DNA from: Pseudomonas sp. MM213
GTDB taxonomy: Bacteria > Pseudomonadota > Gammaproteobacteria > Pseudomonadales > Pseudomonadaceae
Direction of reading: 5' to 3'
NCBI RefSeq assembly: GCF_020423045.1
Contig: NZ_CP081943.1
Location: 5,332,001-5,396,000, forward strand
DNA length: 64,000 nt
Below the pieces are notes generated by a model. It was not told the DNA's origin. It ran no database searches and was given only the letters and a program-made list of their open reading frames with translations. Both the position numbers and the translations under genes were made by a program. Below are positions 4,751-20,856 of the stretch, one piece after another (position 1 is the stretch's first letter; each line of letters opens with the position of its first letter).

Positions 4751-5200
4751 TTACGTGACGATGGGTGGTGCGCGGGTGCGGGCGCCGGGGAAGAAGGTTT
4801 GCCGGGCGTGGCCCAGGCGGGTGGCGGGTGTACTGAAGGTGCTGGTTTTTGGGGCGTCGAATGCAACGAAAGACTGGCCGCCCGTCAGCGCCGGGCAGTT
4901 GAACAGCAGGCTGCAATAGCCGCACTTTTCCCAGATCGCATGATGGGAGGTTTTGGGTGGACAGTGCTCGGCGGCGGGTGTCGCGCCGTGCTCGCCGTGC
5001 GCCATCGCTGACATGTCCATGCTCATGTCCATCGACATGTTCATGGACATCGAAGAGGCGCGCTGATCCATCGGCATCGACTGAGAAATCAGCGGGCCGA
5101 TGAAGATCATCAACATGGCGAACAGGCTGATCCAGCTACCGCGTGTCAGGCTCAATGGCTGACGACGGGGCGCGGATGGCCTGGCGCTAAGCGGGCGCAT
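4751..5200 (-). CDS. DUF2946 family Met/His-rich copper-associated protein
   Basis: 149 residues. One N-terminal hydrophobic segment (ISLFAMLMIFIGPLIS) looks like a signal anchor. It is followed by a striking metal-ligand tract of repeated S-M-N/D-M units ending in AMAHGEHG, then a DUF2946 core with CPPKTSHHAIWEKCGYCSLL. The Met/His tract and CGYC motif suggest periplasmic copper binding. It lies 21 bp after the PCu(A)C gene and upstream of oprC on the same strand. The biochemical function of DUF2946 is not established. Confidence 0.8.
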   Translation of the reverse strand: MRPLSARPSAPRRQPLSLTRGSWISLFAMLMIFIGPLISQSMPMDQRASSMSMNMSMDMSMDMSAMAHGEHGATPAAEHCPPKTSHHAIWEKCGYCSLLFNCPALTGGQSFVAFDAPKTSTFSTPATRLGHARQTFFPGARTRAPPIVT

Positions 5201-5221
5201 GGGCGTATTCAGCTCTGGCAG

Positions 5222-5701
5222 TTACGGATTGTGTGCGTGCACTTGCACGCCGCCCGGTGCGGTTTTCTGCACCGAGACTTCGACCGTCACATCACCGGAC
5301 TTTTCGAAATGCATCGTCAGCGGGAACCGCTTGCCGTCGCTCAGCAGGCTGCGGTCTTTCAGTTCCAGCAGCATCACGTGGTACGCCATCGGTGCAAACG
5401 TGACGTCGCCGCCAGCCGGGATTTCGACGGTTGGCACCTGCTGCATTTTCATCAGATCGTTCTGCATCACGTGCTCGTGCAACTGGGCGATGCCCGCAAT
5501 CGGCGAGTCGACGCTGAGCAGTTTGTCGGCGGTTTTGCCGGGGTTTTGAATCACGAAGTAAGCCGCAACGGTCGGCGCGTTCGGTGGCAATTCCTGTGAC
5601 CACGGATGAGCGATTTGCAGTTCGCCAGCCTTGTATTCATGGGCATTGGCAAAGCAGGCAGGCAGCAGCAATGCAGCCAGAACGATGAGTTTGTTCAACA
5701 T
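5222..5701 (-). CDS. Periplasmic copper chaperone PCu(A)C
   Basis: 159 residues with a cleavable signal peptide ending at NAHA. The mature part carries the complete family copper site H-X10-M-X21-H-X-M, here His75, Met86, His108 and Met110. PCu(A)C proteins hold Cu(I) in the periplasm and in some bacteria deliver it to the CuA site of cytochrome oxidase. Here it sits between two DUF2946 genes and upstream of oprC, so it probably receives copper entering through the outer membrane. The ATG at 5701 is preceded by GGAGAACTGCC, a good ribosome site. Confidence 0.9.
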   Translation of the reverse strand: MLNKLIVLAALLLPACFANAHEYKAGELQIAHPWSQELPPNAPTVAAYFVIQNPGKTADKLLSVDSPIAGIAQLHEHVMQNDLMKMQQVPTVEIPAGGDVTFAPMAYHVMLLELKDRSLLSDGKRFPLTMHFEKSGDVTVEVSVQKTAPGGVQVHAHNP

Positions 5702-5749
5702 GGCAGTTCTCCAGAACGATTCAAAACGCAGGTCAATTGCGAGAAGGAA

Positions 5750-6148
5750 TCACACCAGAGGGGATGCGCGGGGGTTGAGATTCGGCCATTGCTGGCGCGG
5801 AGTGGGAGTGTCGAGTGCGGTGGCGGGCAGGCTTCGATTGGTTTCGAAGCGCGCGAAATACAACTGCGGCACATGCCCGGGCAACGCCACCAATGGCGCA
5901 GAACCGGAACAGCACCAGCAATGCTGCATGTTGGAATGAATGTCGTTCTGCGGAGCTTTCTGATCAAGCGTCCCCAGCGAAATCGCCACCATCTTCGTGC
6001 CGGTGGACGAGCAGAAACTGCCCCACAACACCTGTTCGGCCGGCGATTTCGCCGTCTGCGCCATCGCTCCTGTCATCGGCATGGCGAGCATGTTGAACAG
6101 CACTGCGAAGCAGGCTATCCAGGCAATTGCGAGCCGTTGTCGGGACAT
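5750..6148 (-). CDS. DUF2946 family protein, first gene of the copper set
   Basis: 132 residues with an N-terminal hydrophobic segment (IAWIACFAVLFNMLAMPMTG), then a core with CSSTGTKM and CWCCSGSAP motifs and a Pro-rich tail. Its cysteines and methionines fit a copper-handling role, but no activity is known for DUF2946. It is the promoter-proximal gene of the minus-strand copper cluster, 48 bp before the PCu(A)C gene. The upstream gap holds a perfect inverted repeat (6246-6277) that may be its operator. Confidence 0.75.
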   Translation of the reverse strand: MSRQRLAIAWIACFAVLFNMLAMPMTGAMAQTAKSPAEQVLWGSFCSSTGTKMVAISLGTLDQKAPQNDIHSNMQHCWCCSGSAPLVALPGHVPQLYFARFETNRSLPATALDTPTPRQQWPNLNPRASPLV

Positions 6149-6245
6149 GGGACAGATCCGGTTGGGTGGGAGATCAGGCGCGGCTATTTAGCCTGATCAG
6201 TGCCGATAAGTAAAAACGCGGCCTGCGGTTTGGTGTCGCAGCGTG

Positions 6246-6277
6246 TTTCAAATGAGTGTAGCGGCTCCCATTTGAAA
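6246..6277. promoter_or_regulatory. Perfect 9-bp inverted repeat upstream of the copper cluster
   Basis: TTTCAAATG (6246-6254) and CATTTGAAA (6269-6277) are exact inverted copies separated by 14 nt. The element sits about 100 bp upstream of the first DUF2946 gene and 36 bp beyond the cobK stop. It has no T tail, so an operator is at least as likely as a terminator. It does not resemble the CueR box seen upstream of copA. Confidence 0.4.
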
Positions 6278-6312
6278 TGCCGGGGGCTGGCCCGGGAATA
6301 ATTACTGATCGG

Positions 6313-7035
6313 TCAGAGTATTTCGGCGAGCGCCTCCAACACCTGCACTACCGACCCAAGCTCCCGCTCCACCCCCGGCAACACCGGCCGCTTCAACACC
6401 AGCACCGGCACCCCACGCTCCCGCGCCACTTCCAGTTTCGGCTCGGTGGCGGTGCTGCCGCTGTTTTTGCTGATCAGCACATCGATCTGCCGGCGTTCGA
6501 ACAACTCACGTTCATCCTCGATCAGAAACGGCCCGCGTGCGCCGATCACTTCGCAGCGCTCGTTGCCCGGATAAACGTCCAGGGCGCGCAGCGTCCAGAA
6601 TTGCTGCTCAGGGATTTCATGCAGGTGTTGCAAGGGTTCGCGGCCGAGGGTGAACAGTGGTCGGCGGAACGGTTTGAGTGCTTCGATCAACTCGGCCCAG
6701 TCACTGACTTCGCACCAGTCATCCCCGGCTTGTGGTTGCCAGGCCGGGCGGCGCAGTGCCCAGCAGGGGATGCCGGACACTTGAGCGGCGGTCGCGGCGT
6801 TCTGGCTGATTTGCGCAGCGTAGGGATGAGTCGCGTCCAGCAGCAGATCGATCCCTTCGTCGCGGATGAACTGCGCCAGGCCGTCCGCGCCGCCATAACC
6901 GCCAACGCGAACCCGACAGGTCAGATCGGTCGGTACACGGCCGACGCCGGCCAGGCTGTAGATGTGTTCCGGCCCCAACGTGCGGGCGATGGCCAGCGCT
7001 TCCGTCACACCGCCGAGCAGCAATAGGCGTTTCAT
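6313..7035 (-). CDS. cobK: Precorrin-6A reductase CobK
   Basis: 240 residues. CobK reduces precorrin-6A to dihydro-precorrin-6 with NADPH in aerobic cobalamin synthesis. The N-terminal [11 protein letters not shown] dinucleotide-binding segment, [11 protein letters not shown] and [18 protein letters not shown] are family signatures. The start at 7035 has GGAGC 9 nt upstream and overlaps the cbiD stop in an ATGA, indicating translational coupling. It is the last gene of the cobL-cbiD-cobK operon. Confidence 0.93.
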
Positions 7036-8129
7036 TGAAAAGCTCCTGCGTGGCCGACAATCCCGCCTTGTCGATCGATGGCAAACACTTCGACCTGAAC
7101 CTGTGCCGGCACCACACTGCGGGCAAAATCCAGTGCGTGCTGGCATACCGCGTCGCCGAGTGCGATGCCGGCGGCGCTGGCCATGGCCAACGCCTGTTGA
7201 CTGGTGTTGGCTTCACGCATTGCCTGCTGCAACGCTTCATCCGCGCCGACCGCCGCAGCCCATTCGGCCAGTTGCGGCAGGTCGATGCTCGAATGCCGAC
7301 TGTGCAGATCCATGTGCCCGGCCGCCAGTTTGCTGATCTTGCCGAAACCACCACAAATGCTGAGTTTGGCCACCGGCACTTTGCGAAGGTGTTTGAGCAC
7401 CGCACCGACGAAGTCGCCCATTTCGATCAGGGCGATTTCCGGCAGGTCGTAGACTCGGCGCATGGTGTCTTCGCTGGCGTTGCCGGTGCACGCGGCGATG
7501 TGCAGGTAACCGTTGGTTTTCGCCACGTCGATGCCCTGATGGATCGAGGCAATGTACGCCGCACAGGAAAACGGCCGGACGATGCCGCTGGTGCCGAGAA
7601 TCGACAGGCCGCCGAGAATGCCCAGCCGTGGGTTCATGGTTTTCAACGCCAGCGCCTCGCCGCCCTCGACATTCACCGTGACCTCAAAGCCGCCGGGGTA
7701 ATCGAGTTCTTGCGCGAGTGAGGTCAAATGATCGCTGATCATCTTGCGCGGCACCGGGTTGATCGCCGGCTCGCCGACGCCCAGCACCAGGCCCGGACGG
7801 GTGACGGTGCCGACACCACGGCCGGCACAGAAACGAATGCCCGGTTCTGCGCTCAGGCGCACTCGGGAATAGAGCAGCGCGCCGTGGGTCACGTCCGGAT
7901 CGTCCCCCGCATCCTTGATCGTTCCTGCTTCGGCGCCGTCATCCAGCAACCGGCAGAATTCCAGGCGCATCTGCACGCGCTTGCCTTTGGGCAGGACGAT
8001 GTCCACGGCGTCTGCACTCGTTCCGCCGAGCAGCAATCGAGCGGCCGCCAGGCTGGTGGCGGTGGCGCAGCTGCCGGTGGTCAGGCCGCTGCGCAACGGT
8101 GCGGGTTGTTCGGCGGTTTCGTCACGCAT
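7032..8129 (-). CDS. cbiD: Cobalt-precorrin-5B C1-methyltransferase CbiD
   Basis: 365 residues, full family length. It begins with [19 protein letters not shown] and contains [14 protein letters not shown] and [18 protein letters not shown], all CbiD hallmarks. CbiD performs C1 methylation of the corrin ring with SAM and is the anaerobic-pathway counterpart of CobF. Here it accompanies CobG and CobK of the aerobic route, a mixed arrangement known in pseudomonads. The start overlaps the end of cobL by 8 nt and the stop overlaps cobK. Confidence 0.94.
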
Positions 8130-9333
8130 CGAAAGGTTTGACCACGTCCAGCAAAGTAATCGGCAAGGCCTGGCGCCAGGTATCGAAGTCGCCCAGCGGT
8201 TGCGCCTGGGCGATATGGATACGCGTCAGCTCGCCGCCGTGTTGCTCGCGCCAGGCCATCAGGGTCATTTCACTTTGTAGCGTGACCGCGTTGGCGATCA
8301 GTCGGCCACCGGGTTTGAGCCCCGCCCAGCAAGTGTCCAGCACGCCTTCGCGGGTGACGCCGCCACCGATGAAGATCGCGTCCGGGCGTTCCAGACCTGT
8401 GAGGGCTTGCGGCGCACTGCCACGAACCAATTGCAGGTCGGGCACGCCGAGCGCGTCGCGGTTGTGCTCGATCAACAGTTGCCGACCTTCATCGGCCTCG
8501 ATCGCCAGCGCCCGGCAACCCGGATGGGCGCGCATCCACTCGATGCCGATCGAGCCGCTGCCGGCGCCGACGTCCCACAACAGTTCACCGGGAACCGGGG
8601 CCAGGCGCGCGAGGGTGATTGCACGCACATCACGCTTGGTCAGTTGACCGTCGTGCCTGAACGCCGAATCCGGCAGGCCGGCCAGTCGCGAAAGGCGCGG
8701 CGTGTCGGGGTCGGCGATGCACTCGATGGCGATCAGGTTGAGGTCGGCGATTGCCGGGTCGGCCCAGTCGTTGGCGACACCGTCGATGCGTCGCTCGGCC
8801 TCGCCACCCAAATGTTCCAGCACGCTCAGGCGGCTCGGCCCGAAACCACGTTCACGCAACAACGCCGTTATTGCGGCGGGGCTTTGCCCGTCGTTGCTGA
8901 GCACCAACAAGCGAACACCGCTGAACAACTGCGCGTTAAGTGCCGCGACCGGGCGAGCGACCACCGACAGCGTGACGACATCCTGCAACGGCCAGCCCAT
9001 TCGCGCGGCCGCCAGAGAGCAGGAAGAGGGCGCCGGCAGGATCAGCATTTCCGCGCTGGGCAATTGCCGGGCGAGGCTGGCGCCGACACCGAAGAACATC
9101 GGATCGCCGCTGGCCAGCACGCACACCGGCTCACCCCGCAAGGCCAACAACGCATCGAGGGAGAACGGCGTCGGCCAGAGTTTGCGTTCGCCACGGATGC
9201 AGGGCGGCAGCAGGTCCAGTTGCCGCTGACTGCCGAAGATCTTCGAGGCAGCCAGCAACGCATGCCGGGCATTCCTGCCCAAACCCTTGAAGCCGTCTTC
9301 ACCAATGCCTGTCACGGTCAGCCAGCGAGCCAT
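8122..9333 (-). CDS. cobL: Precorrin-6Y C5,15-methyltransferase (decarboxylating) CobL
   Basis: 403 residues, a CbiE-CbiT fusion as usual for CobL. The N-terminal half (to about residue 200) is a tetrapyrrole methylase with [12 protein letters not shown]. The C-terminal half is a class I methyltransferase with [18 protein letters not shown] and IFIGGG. It methylates C5 and C15 and decarboxylates the C12 acetate of dihydro-precorrin-6. It is the first gene of the left-hand cobalamin operon, divergent from cobG with one orphan gene between them. Confidence 0.94.
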
Positions 9334-9502
9334 GTGTGATCTCTATTCATCTGCATAAAGCGGCACATGATAACGCGGCAGACGCGGAGGCGAGTAATAG
9401 AATGTTTTAAGTTGGTTTTATTAGTCTGTGGCTGGTCATGGTTAAGTTATGTAGTTTGAATGCTCGTGCACTAACTTGATAATGGTTTAAAAGGAATTGA
9501 CT

Positions 9503-10255
9503 ATGGTTATTGATACAACAGGAAGCCTGGACTTGATGGCTTATTCTGATGCGTTCAACCGAGACTTCGCGCCACGGCAAACAAAGAACTCTCGACTTTA
9601 CGTCGCGCAGGATCAGCAAGGCGCTGCCGGGTCGCTATCGGGTGGCAACCTGATCAGCACGGCCAGGGGCGTGTCGCGTCAGGACAAGCGTGACGTCAAC
9701 TCCAGCGTGCGCTATGCGCAGTGGTATGCGAGTCAGCAGCGCAATAGGGACACAGATCCGCAAGGCTGGTTTTCCTTGTTTGCCGTGGTGTTATGGGACT
9801 TGGGCTGGGAAATTGACGAACGCAGGGTTGTCGAGAAAAGTTACAGTCACTTTGCAGGTAAAGTGACTCAGATTTATTTGAACAGAATTGCCGCTGTTAA
9901 CAGTCAGATGGCGATAGTTACAAAAGACATGTTTGAATCATTGTTGGCTAATTCGTCGGCGCTTTGGTCATTGGCCACTGAAAGTCGACGTGGCAGGGAG
10001 TTTTCCATTGCTCCCGCTGAATACGACAAACAAGGGAAGTTATCACTGGACCTGAATGACTTTTCGCTTCGGGCGCTGGCACAGCGGGAAGATTTTCTGT
10101 TTTGGGACTGGAAGGAAGGCAACGTGACGCTCACGCATCGAGCCGCTCCCTTGACCCTGAACAGAGCCCGCTTCGACGAAGTCCGCCCGGAGTTGAACGA
10201 TCGGCTCGACCGGATCGCTGACGCCATTTTCGAGTTTTATTCAGAGCGCCTGTGA
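9503..10255 (+). CDS. Orphan protein, member A of a two-gene family flanking cobG-J
   Basis: 250 residues, no signal peptide or membrane segment, function unknown. The ATG at 9503 has AAGGA 7 nt upstream; the in-frame TTG at 9497 is less likely. Key segments are GVSRQDKRDV (56-65), YAQWYAS (71-77), GW (101-102), LFWDW (199-203) and AIFEF (241-245). The same ordered motifs occur in the product of 15176-15970, at similar spacing, so the two are probably distant homologs. The gene sits alone between divergent cobL and cobG, with an AT-rich upstream gap, and looks inserted into a normally contiguous cobalamin locus. The predicted mix is helical N-terminal, beta-rich C-terminal. Confidence 0.75.
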   Translation: MVIDTTGSLDLMAYSDAFNRDFAPRQTKNSRLYVAQDQQGAAGSLSGGNLISTARGVSRQDKRDVNSSVRYAQWYASQQRNRDTDPQGWFSLFAVVLWDLGWEIDERRVVEKSYSHFAGKVTQIYLNRIAAVNSQMAIVTKDMFESLLANSSALWSLATESRRGREFSIAPAEYDKQGKLSLDLNDFSLRALAQREDFLFWDWKEGNVTLTHRAAPLTLNRARFDEVRPELNDRLDRIADAIFEFYSERL

Positions 10256-10400
10256 GGGAGGCCGCCTGACGGATTCAAGGTCGGAGCAAATGCGACACGT
10301 GGTCTTATGATGCTGCGCGGCAAAGCAGGCATAATACCGCTCGCCTCCGACGGGGGGCGCTCCCACTTCAGATCCGGTCATCCCTTTGAACGAACTCCCT

Positions 10401-11708
10401 ATGTCCCGCGCTTTACGCCCCTCGGCCTGTCCGGGGCTGCTGCGTATCGTCCAGGCCAGAGACGGCGGTATCTGCCGGATAAAACTGGCGGGCGGCACCC
10501 TCACTTCCGAGCAGGCCAATGCTGTCGCCGAAGGTGCGCAGCGTTATGCCGGCTCAGTGATCGAGGCCACTAACCGGGCCAACCTGCAGATTCGCGGCAT
10601 CGTCAAAGAGCAGGAAGCGTTGATCGATAGTCTGCTCGCCGCAGGCCTTGGCCCTTCGCATGCGGCGGGCGACGATGTACGTAATCTGATGCTGAGCCCG
10701 AGCGCAGGTATCGATCGGCAGATGCTGTTCGACACGCGTGAATTGGCCGCACAGATCCTCGCCACCTTGCAAGGGCAAGAACGCTTTCACGACCTCAGCG
10801 CCAAATTCGCCGTGCAACTGGATGGCGGTGAACGCCTGGCGATGCTCGAACACCCCCACGATCTGTGGTTGTCCGCGGTCGAGCGAGAGGGCGAGCGATG
10901 GCTGGCTTTCGGTCTGGCGGGATGCCCCACCGATCAACCGGCCGGTTGTGTTCCACTGGAAGATGGCCACGCGCTGGTGGTCGCCGTGCTTGAACTTTTC
11001 CTGGAACTGGCGGGACCTGAACACACGCGGATGCGCCACTTGCTGGTCGACGTCCCTCAAGCCGAATTTCTCGCTCGCCTCGCCTGGCGACTGCCTTTCC
11101 AGCCCGTTAGCATCTGGCAACGTTCAGTCAGTAACGAGGTGCTGCACATTGGCGCGCACCCGCAGGCGCAAGCCGGTCATGTCTATGTCGGGGCCGTGCC
11201 ACCTCTCGGACGTCTCGATAGCACCATGCTTCGGGGCGCCGCTCGACTGGCGCAGGAATACGGCGATGCAACGCTGCGGTTCACGCCATGGCAAAGCCTG
11301 TTGTTGCCGAACATTCACCACGACAACGCCGATGAAGTCATCCGCCGCCTGCACGCGTTGGGCCTGGTCTGCGATGCCGGTCAGGCCTTGTCGCGGTTGA
11401 TTGCCTGCACTGGCTCGACAGGCTGCGCCAAGGGCCTGGCCGATACCAAGCAGGACGCTCTGCAACTCGCCGCGTTGCTGCAACGCCATGGCCAGCTGCT
11501 GAGCGTGCATCTGAGTGGTTGCCCGCGTTCCTGTGCCGCCGCGCACAGTGCGCCGGTCACTTTGCTGGCCGTCACCCCCGGTCATTACGACCTCTATTTT
11601 CGCGAAGCGGGGCAGCCGGGTTTCGGCGCCCTGCACGCACGCAACCTTACTATTGAAGCGGTCGACGCCTTGCTCGACGCCCGCTCACGGAGCCCCCTTG
11701 ATGCTTGA
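10401..11708 (+). CDS. cobG: Precorrin-3B synthase CobG
   Basis: 435 residues from the ATG at 10401 (an in-frame TTG lies 15 nt earlier; neither has a strong ribosome site). It belongs to the nitrite/sulfite reductase-like family. CACTGSTGCAKG and the later HLSGCPRSCA supply cysteines for a 4Fe-4S cluster. CobG is the oxygen-dependent mono-oxygenase that converts precorrin-3A to precorrin-3B, which marks the aerobic route. The stop overlaps cobH by 8 nt, starting a four-gene overlapping operon. No cobalamin riboswitch is evident in the 145-bp leader. Confidence 0.92.
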   Translation: MSRALRPSACPGLLRIVQARDGGICRIKLAGGTLTSEQANAVAEGAQRYAGSVIEATNRANLQIRGIVKEQEALIDSLLAAGLGPSHAAGDDVRNLMLSPSAGIDRQMLFDTRELAAQILATLQGQERFHDLSAKFAVQLDGGERLAMLEHPHDLWLSAVEREGERWLAFGLAGCPTDQPAGCVPLEDGHALVVAVLELFLELAGPEHTRMRHLLVDVPQAEFLARLAWRLPFQPVSIWQRSVSNEVLHIGAHPQAQAGHVYVGAVPPLGRLDSTMLRGAARLAQEYGDATLRFTPWQSLLLPNIHHDNADEVIRRLHALGLVCDAGQALSRLIACTGSTGCAKGLADTKQDALQLAALLQRHGQLLSVHLSGCPRSCAAAHSAPVTLLAVTPGHYDLYFREAGQPGFGALHARNLTIEAVDALLDARSRSPLDA

Positions 11709-12327
11709 TTACATCCGCGACGGTCAGGAGATCTATCGCAACTCCTTCGCGATCATTCGTGCCGAGGCCAACCTCGAGCGAATCCCGGCCGATCTGGAAA
11801 AACTCGCGGTGCGGGTGATACACGCCTGCGGCATGGTCGATGCGATTGACGGCCTGCAATTTTCGGAAGGCGCGGGCAAGGCCGGGCGCGATGCTTTGGC
11901 CGCCGGTGCACCGATCCTGTGTGATGCGCGGATGGTCTCCGAAGGCGTGACCCGCACGCGTTTGCCGGCGAACAATGAAGTCATCTGCACCCTGCGCGAT
12001 GAAAGCGTTCCGGAGCTTGCCCGTGAACTGGGCAATACCCGTTCCGCCGCCGCGCTGGAACTGTGGCGCCCGCACCTGGAAGGCAGCGTGGTGGTGATTG
12101 GCAACGCGCCGACCGCTTTGTTTTATCTGCTGGAAATGCTCGACGCCGGCGCGCCGAAGCCGGCACTGATCCTTGGCTTCCCGGTGGGCTTCGTCGGTGC
12201 CGCCGAATCCAAGGCCGCACTCGCCGCCGACAGTCGCGGTGTGCCGTTTGTCATCATGCAAGGCCGGCTGGGCGGTAGCGCCATGGCCGCCGCCGCCGTC
12301 AATGCCCTCGCCACGGAGATCGAATGA
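11701..12327 (+). CDS. cobH: Precorrin-8X methylmutase CobH
   Basis: 208 residues. CobH moves the C11 methyl to C12, giving hydrogenobyrinic acid. Family features include the [17 protein letters not shown] segment and [10 protein letters not shown] followed by [13 protein letters not shown]. The ATG at 11701 lies inside the end of cobG, and the stop overlaps the cobI start, so expression is translationally coupled. Length is normal for the family. Confidence 0.94.
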
Positions 12328-13058
12328 TGCAGCAACCTGGACGTTTGATCGGCCTCGGCGTCGGCCCCGGTGATCCGGAACTGATTACAGTCAAGGCCCT
12401 GCGCCTGCTGCGCGAATCGCCGGTGGTGGCGTACTTCGTTGCCAAGGGCAAAAAGGGCAACGCCTTCGGCATCATCGAAGCGCATTTGCAGGACGCTCAG
12501 ACCCTGCTGCCGCTGGTGTATCCGGTGACCACCGAAGCCTTGCCGGCACCGCTGTCCTATGAACAAGTGATCAGCGATTTCTACGATGCGGCCGGCGAAG
12601 AACTCGCCGCGCACATGGATGCAGGCCGAGACGTGGCGGTGATCTGCGAAGGCGACCCGTTCTTCTACGGTTCCTACATGTACCTGCACGATCGCCTGGC
12701 CGAGCGATATGAGGCCGAAGTCGTGCCCGGTGTCTGTTCGATGCTCGGCGGCGCTTCGGTACTTGGCGCGCCATTGGTGTATCGCAATCAGAGCCTGTCG
12801 GTACTGTCCGGCGTGTTGCCGCACGACGATCTCAAGCGGCGTCTCGCCGATGCGGATGCGGCGGTGATCATGAAGCTGGGGCGCAACTTTCCCAAAGTCC
12901 GTCAGGTGCTGGAAGAACTCGGGTTGGCCGAGCGTGCGCTGTACGTCGAACGCGCGACCATGGCCAATCAGAAAATCGTGCCGCTGGATCAGGTCGAGCC
13001 GATGTCCTCGCCGTACTTCTCGCTGATCATCGTTCCAGGCGAAAGGTGGCAAGGCTGA
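12324..13058 (+). CDS. cobI: Precorrin-2 C20-methyltransferase CobI
   Basis: 244 residues of a SAM-dependent tetrapyrrole methylase. It shows the N-terminal [20 protein letters not shown] and the [13 protein letters not shown] loop that bind SAM. CobI adds the C20 methyl to precorrin-2, the committing step to B12. Two adjacent ATGs (12324, 12327) are possible starts. The end overlaps cobJ in a TGATG arrangement. Confidence 0.94.
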
Positions 13059-14761
13059 TGACTCGTCCAGTTCCGGCGATTGTCATTCTCGGCAATGGCA
13101 GCCTCGCGACCGCACGCAAAATTCAGCAGGTGTACCCGGGCGCCTTGATCCACGGTCTGGCCGAGCGGGTCGAGGGCGCGGACCGCATCTATCACGAGTT
13201 CGGCGCGACCCTGCGTGAGCTCTATCAGCAGGACACGCCGATCATTGCCCTGTGCGCCGCTGGCATCGTGATTCGCACCCTGGCGCCGTTGCTGCTGGAA
13301 AAGGGCGCCGAGCCGCCGGTGCTGGCCGTTGCTGAAGATGGCAGCGCAGTGGTGCCGTTGCTGGGCGGTCTGGGTGGCGTGAACGTGCTGGCGCGAGAAA
13401 TTGCGGCTGCACTGGACGTCGCGGCGGCGATCACCACCAGTGGCGAATTGCGCTTCGGTACCTGCCTGCTCAATCCACCCAGCGGTTATGCCTTGGGCGA
13501 TCTGGAGCTGGGCAAGCGCTTCGTTTCCGATTTGCTCGCCGGTGAAACGGTGCGCATCGAAGGCGCGGCCCCGTGGTTGGCGCAGGCGCAGTTGCCCGAG
13601 GACCCGCAGGCGCGGCTGGCTGTTCACGTCGGTCATGCCGAGCGTGCACCGGCGGCCAACGAGCTGTTGATCTATCCGCGCAACGTGTTGGTGGCCGTCG
13701 GGACCGGCGTGGCCGATCTGCCGGGTGCGATTCGCGAGGCGTTGCATCAGGCAAAGATCGCCGTGCAATCGGTGGCCTGTCTGCTGGCCGCCGATAGCGA
13801 AATGTCGAGTGCGGCGCTGCGTGAAGCGGCGCTTGAGCTGGGCGTGCCGCTGCGTTTTGGCAACGATGTCGGCGCAGTCAGTGAGCTGGCACGCAACGCC
13901 CTCGGTCAGTCTGTGAAGATCTTCGGCGACGACACCCTTGCTATCGCAGTGGCCGAGCAACCTCTGGACCCATTGTCGATCGGTCGTCCTCGCGGTCGCT
14001 TGGCGGTGATCGGTCTTGGCCCTGGTGCTGCCGAGCTGATGGTACCGGCGGTCAAGGCCGAACTGGCGCGCGCCAATGATGTGCTCGGTTATGAAACCTA
14101 TGTGCGCATGGCCGGCCCGTTCCGTGCGGATCAAGTCATGCATTGCACCGACAACCGCGAAGAGATGCAGCGCGCACGTCACGCGTTTGAACTGGCGGCG
14201 CAAGGACGGTCGGTGGTGGTGGTTTCTTCCGGTGATCCGGGAGTGTTCGCCATGGCGGCTGCGGTGCTCGAAGCCCTTCACGAGTCCAGCGATGCCGCGT
14301 GGCACAACGTCGATCTGGAAATTCTGCCGGGGGTTTCTGCGTCACTGGCGACGGCGGCTCAGGCCGGTGCGCCGCTGGGACATGACTTCTGTGTGTTGTC
14401 GCTGTCGGACAACCTCAAGCCTTGGGAGATCATCGAGAAGCGTCTGGACCTTGCATCACAGGCCGACCTCGCCCTGGCGTTCTACAACCCGATCTCTCGG
14501 TCCCGTCCATGGCAACTTGGCCGGGCGCTGGAGATCGTCGCGCAATACCGCACACCTGCGACGCCGGTGGTGTTGGGGCGTGACATCGGTCGCCCAGGAC
14601 AGACACTGCGAGTGACGACGCTTGGCCAGTTGACCCCGGACCAGGTGGATATGCGCACCATGGTCCTGGTGGGTTCGTCTACGACCTGCGTGTTTTCGCG
14701 TATGGGTGGCGGTGACTGGGTGTACACGCCGCGTTGGTATGGAGAAAAGCCTGCCACCTGA
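13058..14761 (+). CDS. cobJ: CobE/CbiG-CobJ fusion: precorrin-3B C17-methyltransferase
   Basis: 567 residues in two parts. Residues 1 to about 300 resemble CbiG/CobE (IIALCAAGIVIRTLAPLL, GGVNVLAREIA, and VAVGTGVADLPGAI for the C-terminal CobE part). Residues from about 310 form a tetrapyrrole methylase with VIGLGPGAAELM, SSGDPGVFAMAAA and LPGVSASLATAAQAG, which is CobJ. CobJ methylates C17 with ring contraction. The ATG at 13058 overlaps the cobI stop and has AAGG just upstream; a GTG 12 nt earlier is possible. It is the last gene of the cobGHIJ operon and is followed by an intrinsic terminator. Confidence 0.92.
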   Translation: MTRPVPAIVILGNGSLATARKIQQVYPGALIHGLAERVEGADRIYHEFGATLRELYQQDTPIIALCAAGIVIRTLAPLLLEKGAEPPVLAVAEDGSAVVPLLGGLGGVNVLAREIAAALDVAAAITTSGELRFGTCLLNPPSGYALGDLELGKRFVSDLLAGETVRIEGAAPWLAQAQLPEDPQARLAVHVGHAERAPAANELLIYPRNVLVAVGTGVADLPGAIREALHQAKIAVQSVACLLAADSEMSSAALREAALELGVPLRFGNDVGAVSELARNALGQSVKIFGDDTLAIAVAEQPLDPLSIGRPRGRLAVIGLGPGAAELMVPAVKAELARANDVLGYETYVRMAGPFRADQVMHCTDNREEMQRARHAFELAAQGRSVVVVSSGDPGVFAMAAAVLEALHESSDAAWHNVDLEILPGVSASLATAAQAGAPLGHDFCVLSLSDNLKPWEIIEKRLDLASQADLALAFYNPISRSRPWQLGRALEIVAQYRTPATPVVLGRDIGRPGQTLRVTTLGQLTPDQVDMRTMVLVGSSTTCVFSRMGGGDWVYTPRWYGEKPAT

Positions 14762-14783
14762 AGCGTTGCGCTTCGCTAAAAAA

Positions 14784-14826
14784 AAGCCACGGCCGGGTTT
14801 CCACTCGATTTGCCGTGGCTTTTTCT
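14784..14826 (+). terminator. Intrinsic terminator after cobJ
   Basis: AAGCCACGGC pairs with GCCGTGGCTT across an 18-nt loop, followed by TTTTCTTT on the plus strand and preceded by an A run. It ends the cobGHIJ transcript. Confidence 0.85.
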
Positions 14827-14829
14827 TTG

Positions 14830-15175
14830 CGCTGTCGTAAAAAACATTCGCCAGAGGATGTAGGTTAATTCCTGAATGAATAGAGGATGTTTATCTTCTA
14901 GCTCTCTTGGTGAGTCGGATTATTTACATTTCTGTGTAAGTTGAGTTCTTGTTTTTTAATGGGGCGTGCAGGCGTGTGCGGATCTATTGGGTTTTTCTCT
15001 TGTTTGGTTTTTATTGATTTGTTGTAATTAATTATGGTTCGTTACATCTCGATATTTGTAGGTTGTTTTGTTGTTTTTTTATAAGTTCTGGTGCTGTTGA
15101 ATCTGTCGGGTGGGTGCGATAGTTTTTCGACGGAGCCAGTTCGGCTTTTATATATTTGAATTTAAGGTTTATAAG
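14830..15175. other. AT-rich intergenic segment upstream of orphan gene B
   Basis: About 345 bp with no convincing gene. Base composition drops sharply toward A+T compared with the neighbours, with many T runs. Several weak minus-10-like boxes (TATATTTG, TTATAAG) lie near its right end. It is likely the promoter region of the 15176 gene and looks foreign to the surrounding GC-rich chromosome. Confidence 0.6.
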
Positions 15176-15970
15176 ATGAATAAAATGAATGAAGCAGAAG
15201 CCAGTCTTTATTTCGATCAATGTCTTGAACAATGTCGAGCCAAACTTGAACTTGCCGGTCCGAAAATCCAGGCGCGCTCCGCAGTAAAGCTACCGTTTGA
15301 CCGGGATGAAATGAATGCCGCGATCATGGGCAGTGGTGTAGTGGGCTTCCTGGACGGGATGTCGCGGCGCAACAAGCGCATCGTAAAAAACACCTACGCG
15401 TATGCCGATATCGCTTCAAAAATTCTGTTTCCTGCTAAAGAACAGAAAATTGCACGATATGAGAGCTTTAAAAAGCTGATGTTTGCCACGGGCTGGACCG
15501 AATACCACAGTGCCTTTACCCAGTACAAATCCACCTCCGCCAAGTTGACGCTGGATAATGTAGCTCTGGATATTGTTCATTCTGTGGCCGGTGGCCTGGC
15601 GGGTACGGCCGCGAATGCGCTTAAGGTTGTCGCAGACAAAACTATTGATGCACTGAAAAAACAACCTGAAGCCGTCAAACTGTTTGAACGTCATGCGACT
15701 GAAGCCAGTGGTGGTAATTTTGGCGTGTCTGTTTGCAAACAAGACGAAGACGCTGAAGTGACGATGGCCGTGGCGACTGTCCGTTACGACTCATCGGACA
15801 AGGATGCAAAAGTTCTTTTTGTAGAGTGGGATACTTCCGAACTTCCGATCTTTCAAGGTAAGGCGCACTTTACCATTCACGAAGAAGACTTGAGGAGAGA
15901 GGCTGATTGCATCAAGTTCCTTGATGATCTCAGAGAGGCCGTTTTCATGGAGTTTTCGCCGGTTAAATGA
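15176..15970 (+). CDS. Orphan protein, member B of the family flanking the cobalamin genes
   Basis: 264 residues, no signal peptide, function unknown. The ATG at 15176 has AAGG 8 nt upstream. The N-terminal half is helical and basic. GMSRRNKRIV (61-70), YADIAS (76-81), GW (106-107), LFVEW (214-218) and AVFMEF (255-260) match the ordered motifs of the 9503 gene product. A central Gly/Ala-rich stretch (HSVAGGLAGTAANALK, 135-150) could be a hydrophobic helix. It is monocistronic, with an AT-rich upstream region and a hairpin after the stop. Confidence 0.75.
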   Translation: MNKMNEAEASLYFDQCLEQCRAKLELAGPKIQARSAVKLPFDRDEMNAAIMGSGVVGFLDGMSRRNKRIVKNTYAYADIASKILFPAKEQKIARYESFKKLMFATGWTEYHSAFTQYKSTSAKLTLDNVALDIVHSVAGGLAGTAANALKVVADKTIDALKKQPEAVKLFERHATEASGGNFGVSVCKQDEDAEVTMAVATVRYDSSDKDAKVLFVEWDTSELPIFQGKAHFTIHEEDLRREADCIKFLDDLREAVFMEFSPVK

Positions 15971-15980
15971 AGCCCGGCCG

Positions 15981-16007
15981 CCAGGGGCTAAAAAGCCCCT
16001 GGCTTTC
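15981..16007. terminator. Hairpin between convergent genes
   Basis: CCAGGGGCT and AGCCCCTGG form a perfect 9-bp stem around AAAA, between the stop of orphan gene B and the stop of the minus-strand MarC gene. The T tail is weak on both strands, so it may serve as a modest bidirectional terminator. Confidence 0.6.
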
Positions 16008-16022
16008 AGTGAAGGATTGTCA

Positions 16023-16619
16023 CTAAGGCACCAGGTACCCTTTTACGCCCGTGAAGATGATTTGTGCTGCCAGTGCACACACAAACAACCCCATCAATCG
16101 GCTGACAATCTGCAAACCCTGGTCGCCGAGAATGCGCTCGATGCGGTTCGACAGGTAAAGCACCACACCAACGGTAAAGCTGGCCAGGGCAATGCTGAGG
16201 ATGGCGGTGAGCTTGTCATCCCAGTGGGGCTGGCTCACGCCCATCACCAGCAAGGCGCCGATGGTGCCGGGGCCGACGGTCAGGGGGATGGTCAGCGGGA
16301 CGATGGTGACGTCCTGCTGCACGTTATCGGTCTGGACCGCCGACTTGCCTTGGGCCATGCCCAGTGCCGAGATAAACAGCACGCTGCCGGCACCGATGCG
16401 GAACGCGTCCACGGTAATGCCGAAAACACTGAAAATGTACCGTCCGAACAAGTACAGCAAGACACTGGAAATCAGTGTGGCCGTTGCCACTTTCCAGGCC
16501 AGCCGCCGTTGTTCCTTGCGCGAATAACCGCGGGTCAGGCTGATGAAACAGGACAACACGAAGAACGGGCTGTAGAGCACCAGCATCTTCAGGTAAACGC
16601 TGAACAACACGTGGAGCAT
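16023..16619 (-). CDS. MarC family integral membrane protein
   Basis: 198 residues with about six membrane helices. Family marks include the SPFFVLSCFISLTRG segment near the N-terminus, FRIGAGSVLFISALGM, and VPLTIPLTVGPGTIGALLV. MarC/YhgN proteins are inner-membrane proteins of unclear transport function. The early link to multiple antibiotic resistance was not upheld. It lies 5' of retS on the opposite end of that gene's transcript direction (both minus strand), so it is downstream of retS, 65 bp away. Confidence 0.88.
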   Translation of the reverse strand: MLHVLFSVYLKMLVLYSPFFVLSCFISLTRGYSRKEQRRLAWKVATATLISSVLLYLFGRYIFSVFGITVDAFRIGAGSVLFISALGMAQGKSAVQTDNVQQDVTIVPLTIPLTVGPGTIGALLVMGVSQPHWDDKLTAILSIALASFTVGVVLYLSNRIERILGDQGLQIVSRLMGLFVCALAAQIIFTGVKGYLVP

Positions 16620-16683
16620 GATGCAGGCTCACTGGCGAGAGAAGTCGTGGGGGAGTCTATCAGGCGTTGCAGGGTCTGTCGGC

Positions 16684-19461
16684 TCAGGACGGTTGTGTTG
16701 CCGTCCGTTGCTGTTGATCGCGCTGGGCAACCCAATGTTCGATCAGCTCGCGCAACTGCGACAGCTCGACCGGTTTGGCCATGTGGCCGTCCATGCCGGC
16801 CTGACGTGCGCGCTCTTTATGCTCGGCGAGGATGTGTGCGGTCAATGCCACCACCGGGGTGCGAATCCGTTGGTTGCCGACTTCCCAGGCACGCAATTGC
16901 TGGGTGGCGGAGAAACCGTCGAGGATCGGCATTTCACAATCCATCAGCACCAGGTCGTAACGTTGGGCTTTCATTGCCTGCAAGGCTTCTTCGCCATTGC
17001 TGGCGGTGTCCGGTTGCAAGTTGAGTTTGCCCAGCATGCCGCGAATCACCTTGGTCGAGATGCTGTTGTCTTCGGCCACCAGAATGCGGAAGTCGCTGGG
17101 AACCTTGACCGGCAGGGTCGGGCCGGTGGATGGGAACTGCGATACCGCGAGGCCCTTGTTGCGTTGATTCAGTTCATCCGCCAGCGTGGTCTTCAGGGTG
17201 TAGCCGGCCACCGGTTTGGCGAGGATGCGCTTGATCCCGGAGTTGCGCGCGATGATCTTGCTCGGCGCATTGCTGATGCCTGTGAGCATGATCAGCAGGA
17301 TGTCGTGGTTCAGGCTCGGGTCTTCCTTGATCTTGGCCGCCAGTTGCATGCCGGTCATGCCGGGCATGTTCTGGTCCAGCAGGACCACGTCGAAGTAATC
17401 GCGCAGGTGAGCCTTGGTGCGCAGCAGCGCCAGGGCTTCCTTGCCGGACGGCACCGCGCTGACATTCAGGCCCCAGGCACTGCACTGCTGCACGAGTACC
17501 TTGCGGCAAGTGTCGTTGTCGTCCACCACCAATACCCGTGCGCCTTGCAGCGGGCCATCGAGGTCGGACGTCGGGTGTTCGAGGCGGTCGGGGTCCAGCG
17601 GCAAGGTCAGCCATAAGGTGCTGCCCTGGCTGGCGCCGCTCTTGATGCCGAACTCCCCTTGCATCAGGCGAATCAACTGACGGGCGATCACCAGCCCCAG
17701 GTTGCCGCCCAGGCGGGTGGTCGAGAGGAAGTTCTTGCTGTGCAGTTCGGCGTGCATCAGCGCGTCGCGTTCTTCGGCGTCCATCGGCTCGCCGCTGTCT
17801 TGTACGGCAATGCGCAAGCGCGGTTTGGCCGTGCGCTCGTCGAGGGCGACGACAATCAGGATCTCGCCTTCGTCGGTTTTCTTCAGGGCGTTTTCCAGCA
17901 GGCTCAGCAGCGTCTGGCGCAGGCGCGTCGGGTCACCGCTGATGACCCGCGGCACTTGTGGCTGGATAAAGCTGATCAGCTCGACGTTCTGCTGTTCGGC
18001 CTTGGCGCGGAAGATACTCAGGCAGTCTTCGATCAGCGCATTGAGATCGAACTGCACATCGTCGAGCTCGATCTGCCCGGATTCGAGCTTGGAAATGTCG
18101 AGAATCTCGTTGATCAGGGTCAGCAGTTCGTTGCCGGCGCTGTGAATGGTTTGCACGTAATCGCGCTGCTTGACCGAGAGTGGCGTGCCCAACAACAGTT
18201 CGGTCATGCCCAGTACGCCATTCATCGGGGTACGGATTTCATGACTGATCTTCGCCAGGAATTCGGCCTTGGCATTGATCTCGGCGTTGCTGGCGGCCAG
18301 ATCGCGGCTGACGCTGAAACGGTCTTCGGTGATGCTGCGCTGGCGTTCGCTCAGGGCAATGCTCATCAACAGGCCGCTGATGCAAATGAACACCAGCAGG
18401 GCAATGATCAGGCCTTGCGGTTCTACCAGCGTCAGGCCCAGCAGCGCCGGCAGGATAATCAGCGTGCCGACGTTGAACACCACCATGGCGGCCACGAACA
18501 GTCGGGCCGGGCGATAGCCTTTTTGCCAGTGCCAGGCGCTGACGAACAACATCGTGAGGCCCGCGAGGGCGACCAGCGCGTAGGTGATGATGTTCAGCGG
18601 TAGCGTGTTGACGAACAACAGCAGCAGACCGCAAGCCACAATGAACAGGATGTCGCCCAGCAGCAGCTTGTTCAGCGGGTGCGGGCCGAGCGGGGCGAAG
18701 AAACGGTAGGCGAACATCAGCCCGCACGGTGCGGTCAGTAGCAGGGCGAGGTAAGCGCCCGGTGTTTGCACCGCATGCCAGTCCGACAGCCATGGGCCCG
18801 CGAGATTCAGCAGCAGCGCCAGGCTGATCATCAGCAACGCTTCACAACCTGCCAGCCACAGGCTGCTGCGCGAGCGGGTGTAAGCGTAACGGATCAGGTT
18901 GTGCAGGATCAGCATCCCGATGCAGCCGAACAGCAGACCGTAAATCAGCGTCTGGCTCTGATTGGCTGCGGTCATGATTGCCGATTGCAGGGTGATGTAA
19001 GGCCGCATCTGGTGGTCGGACACCAGGCGCAGGTAGACGTCGAGGGGTTTTTCGCTTTGCGGCAACGGCAACATGAAGTCGCTGTTGGGTAGTGGCCGTT
19101 CTGCCTGAGGCTGTTCGGTGCCGGTGTTCAGTTGCTCGATCAGCTTGTCGCCGTCCAGCACATAAAGATTGAGGTGCGACAGGTCGGGAGCGAACACCCG
19201 CAGCAACTGCTCATGCTTGCCGGGTGCCAGCCTGAAGCGCAACCAGAGTGCACCGCCGGGCTCGGCCGCGGTGAGGCGTTCGAGTTCGATGGGGCTGAAT
19301 TGATTGGTGAAACGAGCGGAACGGATGTCGCTGAGTTGCAGGTCGCCCTGTTCGTCAAGCAATAGCGCCCAGCCACTGCCTTGCGCGGCCTGGGCCGGAA
19401 GCATGCAGAGCAGCGTCAGCAGCGTGACTGTGAAACCTATGGCAATCCTGAGCCAGCGCAC
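16684..19461 (-). CDS. retS: Hybrid sensor kinase RetS
   Basis: 925 residues. Layout: signal peptide to about 26, periplasmic 7TMR-DISMED2 domain (30-165), seven membrane helices (170-370), HisKA with SHEIRTPMNG (His407), HATPase (500-625), and two receiver domains with VVDDND and D696, and VAEDNS and D841. RetS binds GacS and blocks GacA phosphorylation, favouring acute over biofilm/T6SS lifestyles. The ATPase region is poorly conserved in its glycine boxes (DSGEPM; LGGNLGL), in keeping with a kinase acting mainly by heterodimer contact. Identity is supported by architecture and by purD-purH-fis upstream, as in P. aeruginosa. Confidence 0.9.
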   Translation of the reverse strand: MRWLRIAIGFTVTLLTLLCMLPAQAAQGSGWALLLDEQGDLQLSDIRSARFTNQFSPIELERLTAAEPGGALWLRFRLAPGKHEQLLRVFAPDLSHLNLYVLDGDKLIEQLNTGTEQPQAERPLPNSDFMLPLPQSEKPLDVYLRLVSDHQMRPYITLQSAIMTAANQSQTLIYGLLFGCIGMLILHNLIRYAYTRSRSSLWLAGCEALLMISLALLLNLAGPWLSDWHAVQTPGAYLALLLTAPCGLMFAYRFFAPLGPHPLNKLLLGDILFIVACGLLLLFVNTLPLNIITYALVALAGLTMLFVSAWHWQKGYRPARLFVAAMVVFNVGTLIILPALLGLTLVEPQGLIIALLVFICISGLLMSIALSERQRSITEDRFSVSRDLAASNAEINAKAEFLAKISHEIRTPMNGVLGMTELLLGTPLSVKQRDYVQTIHSAGNELLTLINEILDISKLESGQIELDDVQFDLNALIEDCLSIFRAKAEQQNVELISFIQPQVPRVISGDPTRLRQTLLSLLENALKKTDEGEILIVVALDERTAKPRLRIAVQDSGEPMDAEERDALMHAELHSKNFLSTTRLGGNLGLVIARQLIRLMQGEFGIKSGASQGSTLWLTLPLDPDRLEHPTSDLDGPLQGARVLVVDDNDTCRKVLVQQCSAWGLNVSAVPSGKEALALLRTKAHLRDYFDVVLLDQNMPGMTGMQLAAKIKEDPSLNHDILLIMLTGISNAPSKIIARNSGIKRILAKPVAGYTLKTTLADELNQRNKGLAVSQFPSTGPTLPVKVPSDFRILVAEDNSISTKVIRGMLGKLNLQPDTASNGEEALQAMKAQRYDLVLMDCEMPILDGFSATQQLRAWEVGNQRIRTPVVALTAHILAEHKERARQAGMDGHMAKPVELSQLRELIEHWVAQRDQQQRTATQPS

Positions 19462-19560
19462 GGCGAAATCCCTTCGTAGGTTGATGCCAGAATATAACTA
19501 TGCGCGGCGCCGGAATAGTCCGGCAAGGGCCTGAATCCCAAGCCCTGCCGAATGGATCGC

Positions 19561-20856
19561 TTATTCCTGATTTTCGCCACGCTCACGGGCAATGGCACGG
19601 TAGCCAATGTCCTTGCGATAGAAGCAGCCTTCCCAGTCAATCTTCGCGGCCAGCTTGTAAGCCTGCTGCTGGGCAGCATCGACGCTGGCACCCATGGCAG
19701 TGGCGCAAAGCACCCGACCGCCGGCCGTCACCACTTGACCGTCCTTGAGCGCAGTACCGGCGTGGAAGACTTTGCCTTCCAGCGCTGCGGCTGCATCCAG
19801 ACCGTTGATGGCGACGCCTTTAGCGTAGTCGCCAGGATAGCCGCCTGCCGCCAAAACAATACCGACGCTCGGGCGTGGATCCCATTGGGCTTCGACCTTG
19901 TCCAGCGCTTGCGCCAGGGCCGCCTCGACCAGCAACACCAGGCTCGACTGCAAGCGCAGCATAACCGGTTGGGTCTCAGGGTCGCCGAAACGGCAGTTGA
20001 ATTCGATGACTTTTGGGTTACCAGCCTTGTCGATCATCAAGCCAGCGTAGAGGAAACCGGTGTAAACATTGCCTTCCTCGGCCATGCCGCGCACGGTCGG
20101 CCAGATCACCAGGTCCATGACGCGCTTGTGCACTTCGCTGGTGACGACTGGCGCAGGGGAGTAAGCACCCATGCCGCCGGTGTTCGGGCCGGTATCGCCG
20201 TCGCCGACGCGTTTGTGGTCCTGGCTGGTGGCCATCGGCAGGACGTTCTTGCCGTCGACCATGACGATGAAGCTGGCTTCCTCGCCGTCCAGGAATTCTT
20301 CGATGACCACGCGCGAACCGGCTTCGCCAAACGCGTTACCCGCGAGCATGTCGCGCACGGCGTCTTCGGCTTCGGCCAGTGTCATGGCAACGATCACGCC
20401 TTTACCGGCGGCCAGGCCATCGGCCTTGATCACGATCGGTGCGCCTTTTTCACGCAGATAAGCCAGGGCTGGCTCGATCTCGGTGAAGTTCTGGTAGTCG
20501 GCGGTCGGGATCTTGTGGCGTGCCAGGAAATCCTTGGTGAAGGCTTTCGAACCTTCCAGCTGCGCGGCGCCAGCGGTCGGACCGAAGCAGTCCAGGCCAC
20601 GGGAGCGGAACAGATCGACGACGCCGGCAACCAGCGGCACTTCCGGACCGACGATGGTCAGGGAAACGTTTTTCTCGGCGAAGTCGGCCAGTTGCTCCAG
20701 TGCGAGCACATCGATAGCGACGTTTTCGCACTTGGCTTCAATGGCGGTGCCGGCGTTGCCCGGAGCCACGAAAACTTTCTGCACGCGCGGATCCTGAGCC
20801 ACTTTCCAGGCCAGGGCGTGTTCACGGCCACCGCTGCCAATGATCAAAACATTCAT
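19561..20856 (-). CDS. purD: Phosphoribosylamine-glycine ligase PurD
   Basis: 431 residues, normal for GAR synthetase. It joins glycine to phosphoribosylamine using ATP in purine synthesis. Motifs: N-terminal MNVLIIGSGGREHALAWK, FGPTAGAAQLEGSKAF, PIVIKADGLAAGKGVIVA (ATP-grasp), and GFLYAGLMIDKAGNPKVIEF. The ATG at 20856 has GAGG at good spacing. It lies between purH and retS on the minus strand; a REP pair separates it from purH. Confidence 0.97.
   Translation of the reverse strand: MNVLIIGSGGREHALAWKVAQDPRVQKVFVAPGNAGTAIEAKCENVAIDVLALEQLADFAEKNVSLTIVGPEVPLVAGVVDLFRSRGLDCFGPTAGAAQLEGSKAFTKDFLARHKIPTADYQNFTEIEPALAYLREKGAPIVIKADGLAAGKGVIVAMTLAEAEDAVRDMLAGNAFGEAGSRVVIEEFLDGEEASFIVMVDGKNVLPMATSQDHKRVGDGDTGPNTGGMGAYSPAPVVTSEVHKRVMDLVIWPTVRGMAEEGNVYTGFLYAGLMIDKAGNPKVIEFNCRFGDPETQPVMLRLQSSLVLLVEAALAQALDKVEAQWDPRPSVGIVLAAGGYPGDYAKGVAINGLDAAAALEGKVFHAGTALKDGQVVTAGGRVLCATAMGASVDAAQQQAYKLAAKIDWEGCFYRKDIGYRAIARERGENQE

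What the first reader, a model, noticed from the sequence alone, without database searches (positions are those of the whole stretch)
9503..15970. Two orphan proteins at the cobalamin locus look like distant members of one undescribed family
The products of 9503-10255 and 15176-15970 share ordered motifs at matching spacing. These are GVSRQDKRDV versus GMSRRNKRIV, YAQWYAS versus YADIAS, a GW pair about 40 residues later, LFWDW versus LFVEW, and AIFEF versus AVFMEF near the C-terminus. Lengths are similar (250 and 264). Neither has a signal peptide or an obvious enzyme motif. One sits between divergent cobL and cobG, the other just past cobJ, so the cobalamin operons are bracketed. The split suggests insertion of a gene pair or of two separate copies. 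A role in secretion, toxicity or defence is possible but unsupported.
Basis: partly seen in the sequence, partly recalled or inferred. Interest (0 to 1): 0.72.

Follow-up and report, generated by a model that had tools for sequence, protein, structure and literature searches.

The report
Cyt-like protein cassette beside cobalamin genes
Two unnamed Pseudomonas proteins beside the vitamin B12 genes are distant relatives of each other and of known membrane-attacking toxins, and look like the remainder of a fast-changing three-gene set that may serve bacterial self-killing or attack on other organisms.

Summary

They are not an isolated pair. Across Pseudomonas the cob-marC-kinase locus carries three paralogous types; I>II>III in 37 of 51 loci that have all three. 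B is type I, A a displaced type III; type II is missing here. Members occur at 90 of 121 loci examined and, in 16 of 149 genomes, elsewhere too. They diverge far faster than their neighbours.

Outside Pseudomonas the domain is rare, but in 8 of 14 stretches it lies beside, or is fused to, caspase, trypsin or CHAT proteases, often with peptidoglycan hydrolases, the setting of bacterial gasdermins. Best reading: a multi-component membrane-attacking system. Its target (self or others) is undecided, pore formation untested, and no such partners were found at the Pseudomonas loci.

The parts
9503..10255 (+). protein A (250 aa): type III member of the family, in the cobL|cobG slot
   Evidence: GC 0.530 against 0.609 for the window
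9334..9502 (.). AT-rich gap upstream of A (GC 0.402); one sigma-70-like match at 9456-9483
   Evidence: (3 promoter-like sites in 9300-16100, 1.9 expected by chance)
15176..15970 (+). protein B (264 aa): type I member, cytolysin fold predicted, conserved Cys187, in the cobJ|marC slot
   Evidence: GC 0.481
14762..15175 (.). AT-rich leader region of B (GC 0.394)
14780..14826 (+). hairpin with U-run after cobJ (GCCACGGC...GCCGTGGC then T-rich), likely terminator that separates B from the cob operon
   Evidence: read by eye from the sequence; not listed by the scan
8122..9333 (-). flank: cobL
   Evidence: ORF; anchor; name from the finding and general knowledge
10401..11708 (+). flank: cobG
   Evidence: ORF (start taken by me); anchor; name as above
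13046..14761 (+). flank: cobJ; used to find the locus in 140 of 149 genomes
   Evidence: name as above
16023..16619 (-). flank: MarC-like membrane protein
   Evidence: name from general knowledge, not from a family search
16684..19461 (-). flank: hybrid histidine kinase
   Evidence: name from general knowledge, not from a family search

Best explanation
A and B are paralogous cytolysin-fold (Cyt/Evf/volvatoxin-like) proteins, types III and I of a three-component cassette (I>II>III) whose main home is one rapidly turning-over spot of Pseudomonas chromosomes. Shown: homology of the three types, the locus, the conserved I>II gene order, allele divergence and at least one whole-cassette replacement, and the fold of B by prediction plus a sequence profile. 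Inferred: (1) the proteins are made without a signal peptide and act together on a membrane, where helices swing off the beta-sheet, the sheet inserts and mixed oligomers perforate the bilayer, as proposed for Cyt and volvatoxin; (2) type I may be lipidated on its conserved Cys, as Evf is on Cys209; (3) by the company the domain keeps elsewhere (caspase, trypsin or CHAT protease, peptidoglycan hydrolase, lipase, TIR-nSTAND), the ancestral job was most likely an intracellular membrane-attack effector of a bacterial self-killing or immune system, a Cyt-fold counterpart of bacterial gasdermins. In the window, with type II missing and no such partner found, activity may be reduced or depend on unlinked factors. 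My weights: homology 0.97, cytolysin fold 0.85, membrane action 0.7; for the Pseudomonas cassette self-killing/immunity 0.4 against attack on animals or protists 0.3.
Confidence: 0.6

Rival explanations
1. Host-directed cytolysin: the cassette makes an Evf/Cyt-like toxin that leaves the cell by lysis or an unlinked secretion route and acts on insect gut, amoeba or nematode membranes. Rapid divergence reflects differing hosts.
For: Closest solved folds are Cyt delta-endotoxins and Evf, an insect-gut factor (PMC7315124 and PMC5780409, passages). Dickeya carries a four-gene cyt cluster, three of whose products are toxic to pea aphid (PMC5390079, abstract and passages). Many plant-associated Pseudomonas meet insects (general knowledge).
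Against: No signal peptide seen by eye, and the window genes around A and B are cob, marC and kinase genes. In 8 of 14 stretches outside Pseudomonas the domain sits with protease partners, often with peptidoglycan hydrolases.
Confidence: 0.3
2. Inter-bacterial or kin-discrimination effector: cassettes differ between strains and mark self from non-self. Mismatched components kill, matched ones are silent.
For: Whole-cassette replacement: cobJ 96-97% identical while all three genes are 15-19% identical.
Against: No immunity-like partner gene was noticed; one event probably underlies all 6 divergent pairs of 22; nothing shows export.
Confidence: 0.12
3. Non-toxic lipid-binding protein: the fold serves fatty-acid binding (as the Evf pocket suggests) with a housekeeping role in the cell envelope or for the neighbouring genes.
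For: Evf buries a palmitate; a lipid-binding site was proposed for Cyt1 and Cyt2 proteins (PMC5390079, passages). Type I keeps a Cys.
Against: Extreme divergence, absence from 31 of 121 loci and AT-rich composition do not fit housekeeping. The cob genes are present without the cassette.
Confidence: 0.1
4. Chance resemblance or separate orphan insertions: A and B are unrelated genes that happened to land near cob genes.
For: Only 18% identity in a direct comparison.
Against: Profile comparison E 4e-36 with clean controls; 214 relatives in 90 of 121 loci.
Confidence: 0.02

Closest known systems
Evf, Erwinia virulence factor (PDB 2w3y)
   Different: 6-8% identity in these structural alignments and no sequence-level hit in any search. 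Evf is described as a single gene (title of a reference seen in PMC13207255), here up to three paralogues. Whether Cys187 of B is Evf's Cys209 could not be tested.
Cyt1/Cyt2 delta-endotoxins and Dickeya Cyt-like toxins
Volvatoxin A2
   Different: Single fungal protein of about 190 residues (origin recalled); no sequence match.
Bacterial gasdermins
   Same: Works-like comparison only: pore former encoded beside caspase-like, CHAT or trypsin-like proteases, with amidase, lysozyme or phospholipase genes, mostly palmitoylated (PMC9612521, passages).
   Different: The predicted fold is Cyt-like; the protease link is seen in relatives, not at the Pseudomonas loci.
Peptidase-centred conflict systems of multicellular bacteria
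   Same: PMC7159879 (passages) describes systems coupling trypsin, caspase and peptidoglycan-attacking effectors, the company kept by the outside relatives.
   Different: The terms Evf, Cyt1 and volvatoxin do not occur in the text held; its pore-forming effector is a two-helix membrane domain.
Tripartite pore-forming toxins (Hbl, Nhe, AhlABC)
   Same: Three related proteins from three neighbouring genes (recalled, from no call).
   Different: Recalled as ClyA-type helical toxins; the fold predicted here differs.

Membership tests
Cytolysin-fold superfamily (Cyt, Evf, volvatoxin) | Alpha-helices packed on the Cyt-type beta-sheet | tested here: met
   B. For A alone inconclusive; its homology to B is.
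Cytolysin-fold superfamily (Cyt, Evf, volvatoxin) | Detectable sequence relation to a known member | tested here: met
   Type I profile to Cyt1Aa E 0.003 and 9e-4, about 110 residues; modest. Not seen with single sequences, close-family alignments (37, 38) or broad type II or III profiles (69, 70).
Cytolysin-fold superfamily (Cyt, Evf, volvatoxin) | Membrane binding or pore formation | not testable with these tools
   -
Bacillus Cyt toxin family proper | Match to a curated Cyt toxin family model (that Pfam holds one is recalled) | tested here: not met
   Pfam: none for A or B at E<=1, nor at E<=0.01 for 34 type I and 36 type III members; type II was not scanned with Pfam. Hence not filed as Cyt toxins.
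Evf | S-acylated Cys inside the lipid pocket | tested here: inconclusive
   B Cys187 conserved in 80 of 89 type I proteins but no residue-level alignment with Evf was available; A has no Cys.
Evf | Insect-gut persistence phenotype | not testable with these tools
   -
Bacterial gasdermin | Gasdermin fold | tested here: inconclusive
   The Cyt/Evf/volvatoxin group is on top (50 rows shown each); absence of gasdermin from a list does not exclude it.
Bacterial gasdermin | Adjacent activating protease | tested here: not met
   For Pseudomonas: relatives of six partner proteins at 0 of 200 cob loci and 0 of 4 other sites; other kinds of protease were not sought. Outside Pseudomonas met in 8 of 14 stretches.
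Known anti-phage systems (PADLOC) | Match to a PADLOC model | tested here: not met
   A none; B one weak partial match to a pAgo model, E 0.009, taken as chance.
ClyA-type tripartite toxins | ClyA-type helical fold | tested here: inconclusive
   No ClyA-type chain among the rows shown, which does not exclude it.

The most novel reading that the evidence does not exclude
The family is a second, gasdermin-independent class of bacterial pore-forming death effectors: Cyt/Evf-fold proteins switched on by caspase, trypsin or CHAT proteases and working with peptidoglycan hydrolases. Pseudomonas runs it as a three-component, cassette-exchanged set at one favoured chromosomal locus, and the Cyt and Evf toxins that act on insects would be offshoots of an intrabacterial immune effector.
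Probability: 0.3. Interest if true: 0.92.

Novelty: new variant of a known kind. Interest (0 to 1): 0.72.

Why it matters
It ties an unannotated gene set, present at 90 of 121 Pseudomonas cob loci examined, to the Cyt/Evf cytolysin fold, and shows that fold in three paralogous parts that travel together. A fusion and operons with caspase, trypsin, CHAT and cell-wall hydrolases make it testable whether this fold, known from toxins that act on insects, also serves bacterial programmed death. The favoured locus with diverged and exchanged cassettes gives a natural series of alleles for finding what they recognise. The conserved type I cysteine makes a further case of bacterial S-palmitoylation checkable.

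Tried and rejected
Pfam, NCBIfam and PADLOC scans of A and B gave only weak matches and PHROGs none. Single-sequence and close-family PDB sequence searches gave nothing relevant; only the broad type I profiles found Cyt1Aa. Type II and III profiles found no relevant chain, and the solitary outside member L176 none either. Rfam: no family at its gathering score in 5000-20000. The promoter and terminator scan was near its shuffles (3 against 1.9; 9 against 8.1). Phage records: no match to the L176 protein. A search of 367 genomes of G820's class found only G820 itself, so the fusion rests on one genome. A link to cobalamin function was considered and set aside: cob genes are present with or without the cassette, and the genes can stand beyond marC or elsewhere in the genome. 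No gasdermin or ClyA-type chain was among the rows shown by the fold searches, which does not exclude them. Residue matching of B Cys187 to Evf Cys209 was wanted but no tool gave the alignment. The last protein search, with A3, returned 32 proteins, 26 of them already known. Signal peptides were judged by eye only.

Rows dropped before counts: 19 of 139 other genomes with cobJ were not fetched (those with cobJ under about 68% identity and one contig-end copy) and 9 of 149 had no cobJ hit at E<=1e-100; one type I protein under 195 aa was left out of the 89; of 16 outside stretches two short ones (L177, L178) were not checked for partners.

Papers. Passages read by term search: PMC5390079, PMC7315124, PMC5780409, PMC13207255, PMC13076323, PMC8195603, PMC7159879, PMC9612521. 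For the others only search listings were seen. That I found no description of this Pseudomonas family in print rests on searches of the open-access library, by those terms only.
Full report
Observation. A (9503-10255, 250 aa) and B (15176-15970, 264 aa) are open frames as stated. Each close-family profile finds one convincing copy in the 6.75 Mb genome. A direct BLASTP gives 18% identity over 239 columns with E 0.001. Profiles of their close relatives (29 and 25 sequences; those with a source name are from Pseudomonas or a compost metagenome) align with probability 92 and E 5.8e-7 over 196 columns.

Homology, with controls. Broad profiles of B's type (A3, 34 rows) and A's type (A5, 36 rows) align with probability 99.9, E 4.4e-36, over 215 columns. 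Type I with type II: 99.2, E 5.4e-20; type II with type III: 99.4, E 4.9e-21. Two reversed profiles and three column-shuffled ones give probability 0.1 to 0.4 and E 0.17 to 0.7.

The locus. In 149 Pseudomonas genomes the close profiles alone hit 38 (A) and 76 (B). cobJ was found in 140 of 149. I fetched the cob region of 120 of the other 139; the 19 left out are mostly those with the most divergent cobJ. The first 20 regions were chosen because they held hits, the other 100 by cobJ alone, with coordinates shifted in a few to take in a known hit. With the window that makes 121 loci. An iterated profile converged at 214 members, in 90 of 121 loci: 20 of 20 chosen by hit, 69 of 100 fetched by cobJ, and the window. 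Four of the 31 empty stretches hold no marC match, so a member further on cannot be excluded there. Members lie in three slots: cobL|cobG, cobJ|marC and marC|histidine kinase. A tree splits them into type I (90, with B), type II (53) and type III (71, with A); support is 0.51 for I, 0.999 for II and 0.70 for III, so the split leans also on gene order. Contents per locus: I+II+III 47, none 31, I alone 22, I+III 14, I+II+2 III 4, I+II 2, I+2 III 1. Each of the 90 occupied loci has exactly one type I. All 53 loci with I and II have them adjacent as I>II, median spacing 47 bp by mechanical starts; 37 of the 51 loci with all three types read I>II>III. In 80 further named Pseudomonas loci found through MarC (they overlap in part with the anonymous set), 64 have members and 63 of these a type I; one, P. 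reinekei, shows only a type II above the threshold. The window is an I+III locus: type III sits in cobL|cobG, and apart from the match on A itself no type II match in the genome is better than E 0.04.

Members elsewhere. The locus is favoured, not exclusive: comparing, 16 of 149 genomes have a further match at E<=0.01 away from the cob region (over 40 kb off or on another contig), not counting one broken match in G054.

Empty sites. Without a member in the slot the cobL-cobG gap is 145 bp at the median (96 loci), with one 1076 (13 loci, the window's 1067 among them); marC-kinase 97 (94 loci) against 2461 (11 loci). For cobJ-marC the difference is not clear (1575 in 39, 2003 in 66), presumably because other genes can stand there.

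Turnover. Where cobJ is 80-85% identical, type I proteins are 20% identical at the median, type II 19%, type III 19%, while MarC is 95% and CobG 69%. At cobJ>=95% identity, 6 of 22 type I pairs fall below 40%. These compare two genomes (L042, L043) with three others, so they probably reflect one event, in which all three genes differ (15-19% identical in the pairs shown) and the cassette stands on the other side of marC. None of 32 such close pairs differs in presence. The genes are AT-rich (A 0.53, B 0.48, leader of B 0.39; window 0.61), consistent with foreign origin.

Cysteine. One Cys (B Cys187) is kept in 80 of 89 type I proteins although their median identity is 22%. In type III a Cys stands in 69% of 70 proteins at the column of A residue 172, which the profile alignment pairs with it; A itself has Ala there and no Cys at all. 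Of seven outside members aligned, two keep it and five do not. Evf is palmitoylated on Cys209 (PMC5780409, passage). Equivalence is a hypothesis.

Outside Pseudomonas. None of 89 genomes from 18 other genera of the family; of 369 genomes of the class, two strong hits in one genus plus two borderline ones; of 398 genomes of the phylum, G820 and, weakly, G952 besides Pseudomonas. Plasmids: 50 of 72,556 records with the L176 protein as query, 45 of them Sinorhizobium. Phages: none. I examined 14 stretches. A partner protease lies next to, or is fused with, the member in 8 of 14, representing five arrangements: the G820 fusion GDSL lipase-caspase-M15-Cyt-like, 1128 aa; a lipase-amidase-M15 protein plus trypsin in S. 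fredii and two S. meliloti, partly split into pieces in the latter; CHAT plus GH108 plus TIR-nSTAND1-WD40 in R. leguminosarum; Trypsin_2 in G232; a stretch similar to that trypsin (37% identity) after a tandem pair in two S. meliloti plasmids carrying nearly the same allele. In 6 of 14 none was found; three of those have no annotation and were checked with six query proteins only. Tandem I+II-like pairs occur in Sinorhizobium and in the actinobacterium Curtobacterium. The same six queries find nothing at 200 Pseudomonas cob loci, so these partners are not part of the Pseudomonas cassette.

Interpretation. The company of proteases, cell-wall hydrolases, lipase and TIR-nSTAND resembles that described for bacterial gasdermins (PMC9612521, passages), most of which are also palmitoylated. 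That is a likeness of working, not membership. Two eLife surveys of conflict systems were searched by term: PMC8195603 holds no Evf, delta-endotoxin or cytolytic, PMC7159879 no Evf, Cyt1 or volvatoxin. For Pseudomonas itself I weigh self-killing/immunity at 0.4 and attack on animals or protists at 0.3; rapid divergence fits both. Membrane action follows from the fold and is untested.

Noticed in passing
   Followed up: partly
L264, Rhizobium leguminosarum plasmid pRL31b3, 1469-10375: CHAT-TPR protease, GH108 endolysin-like protein, Cyt/Evf-like protein and TIR-nSTAND1-WD40 protein in a row: looks like a complete conflict system.
   Followed up: partly
L259:7598-8029 and L266:7920-8351, Sinorhizobium meliloti plasmids: Stretch similar to a trypsin-like peptidase (37% identity) directly after the tandem I+II pair; in L259 it is annotated only as a short hypothetical protein.
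   Followed up: no
L288:3748-6111, L290:3532-5094, L291:3840-5480; also L289:3585-4880: Pseudomonas members away from the cob locus; three of the four sites repeat the adjacent I+II pair, so the pair moves as a unit. Twelve more such sites were not fetched.
   Followed up: partly
L042, L043, L047, L050 (cobJ to the family genes): Several kilobases of further DNA lie between cobJ and the cassette in some Pseudomonas genomes; content not identified.
   Followed up: no
   Followed up: no
22 loci with type I alone: These genomes keep only a type I gene after cobJ, and in 20 of the 22 no cbiD was detected at the cob locus; type I may suffice alone there.
   Followed up: no
   Followed up: no
window 14780-14826: Clear hairpin with U-run after cobJ that the consensus scan did not list.
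   Followed up: no
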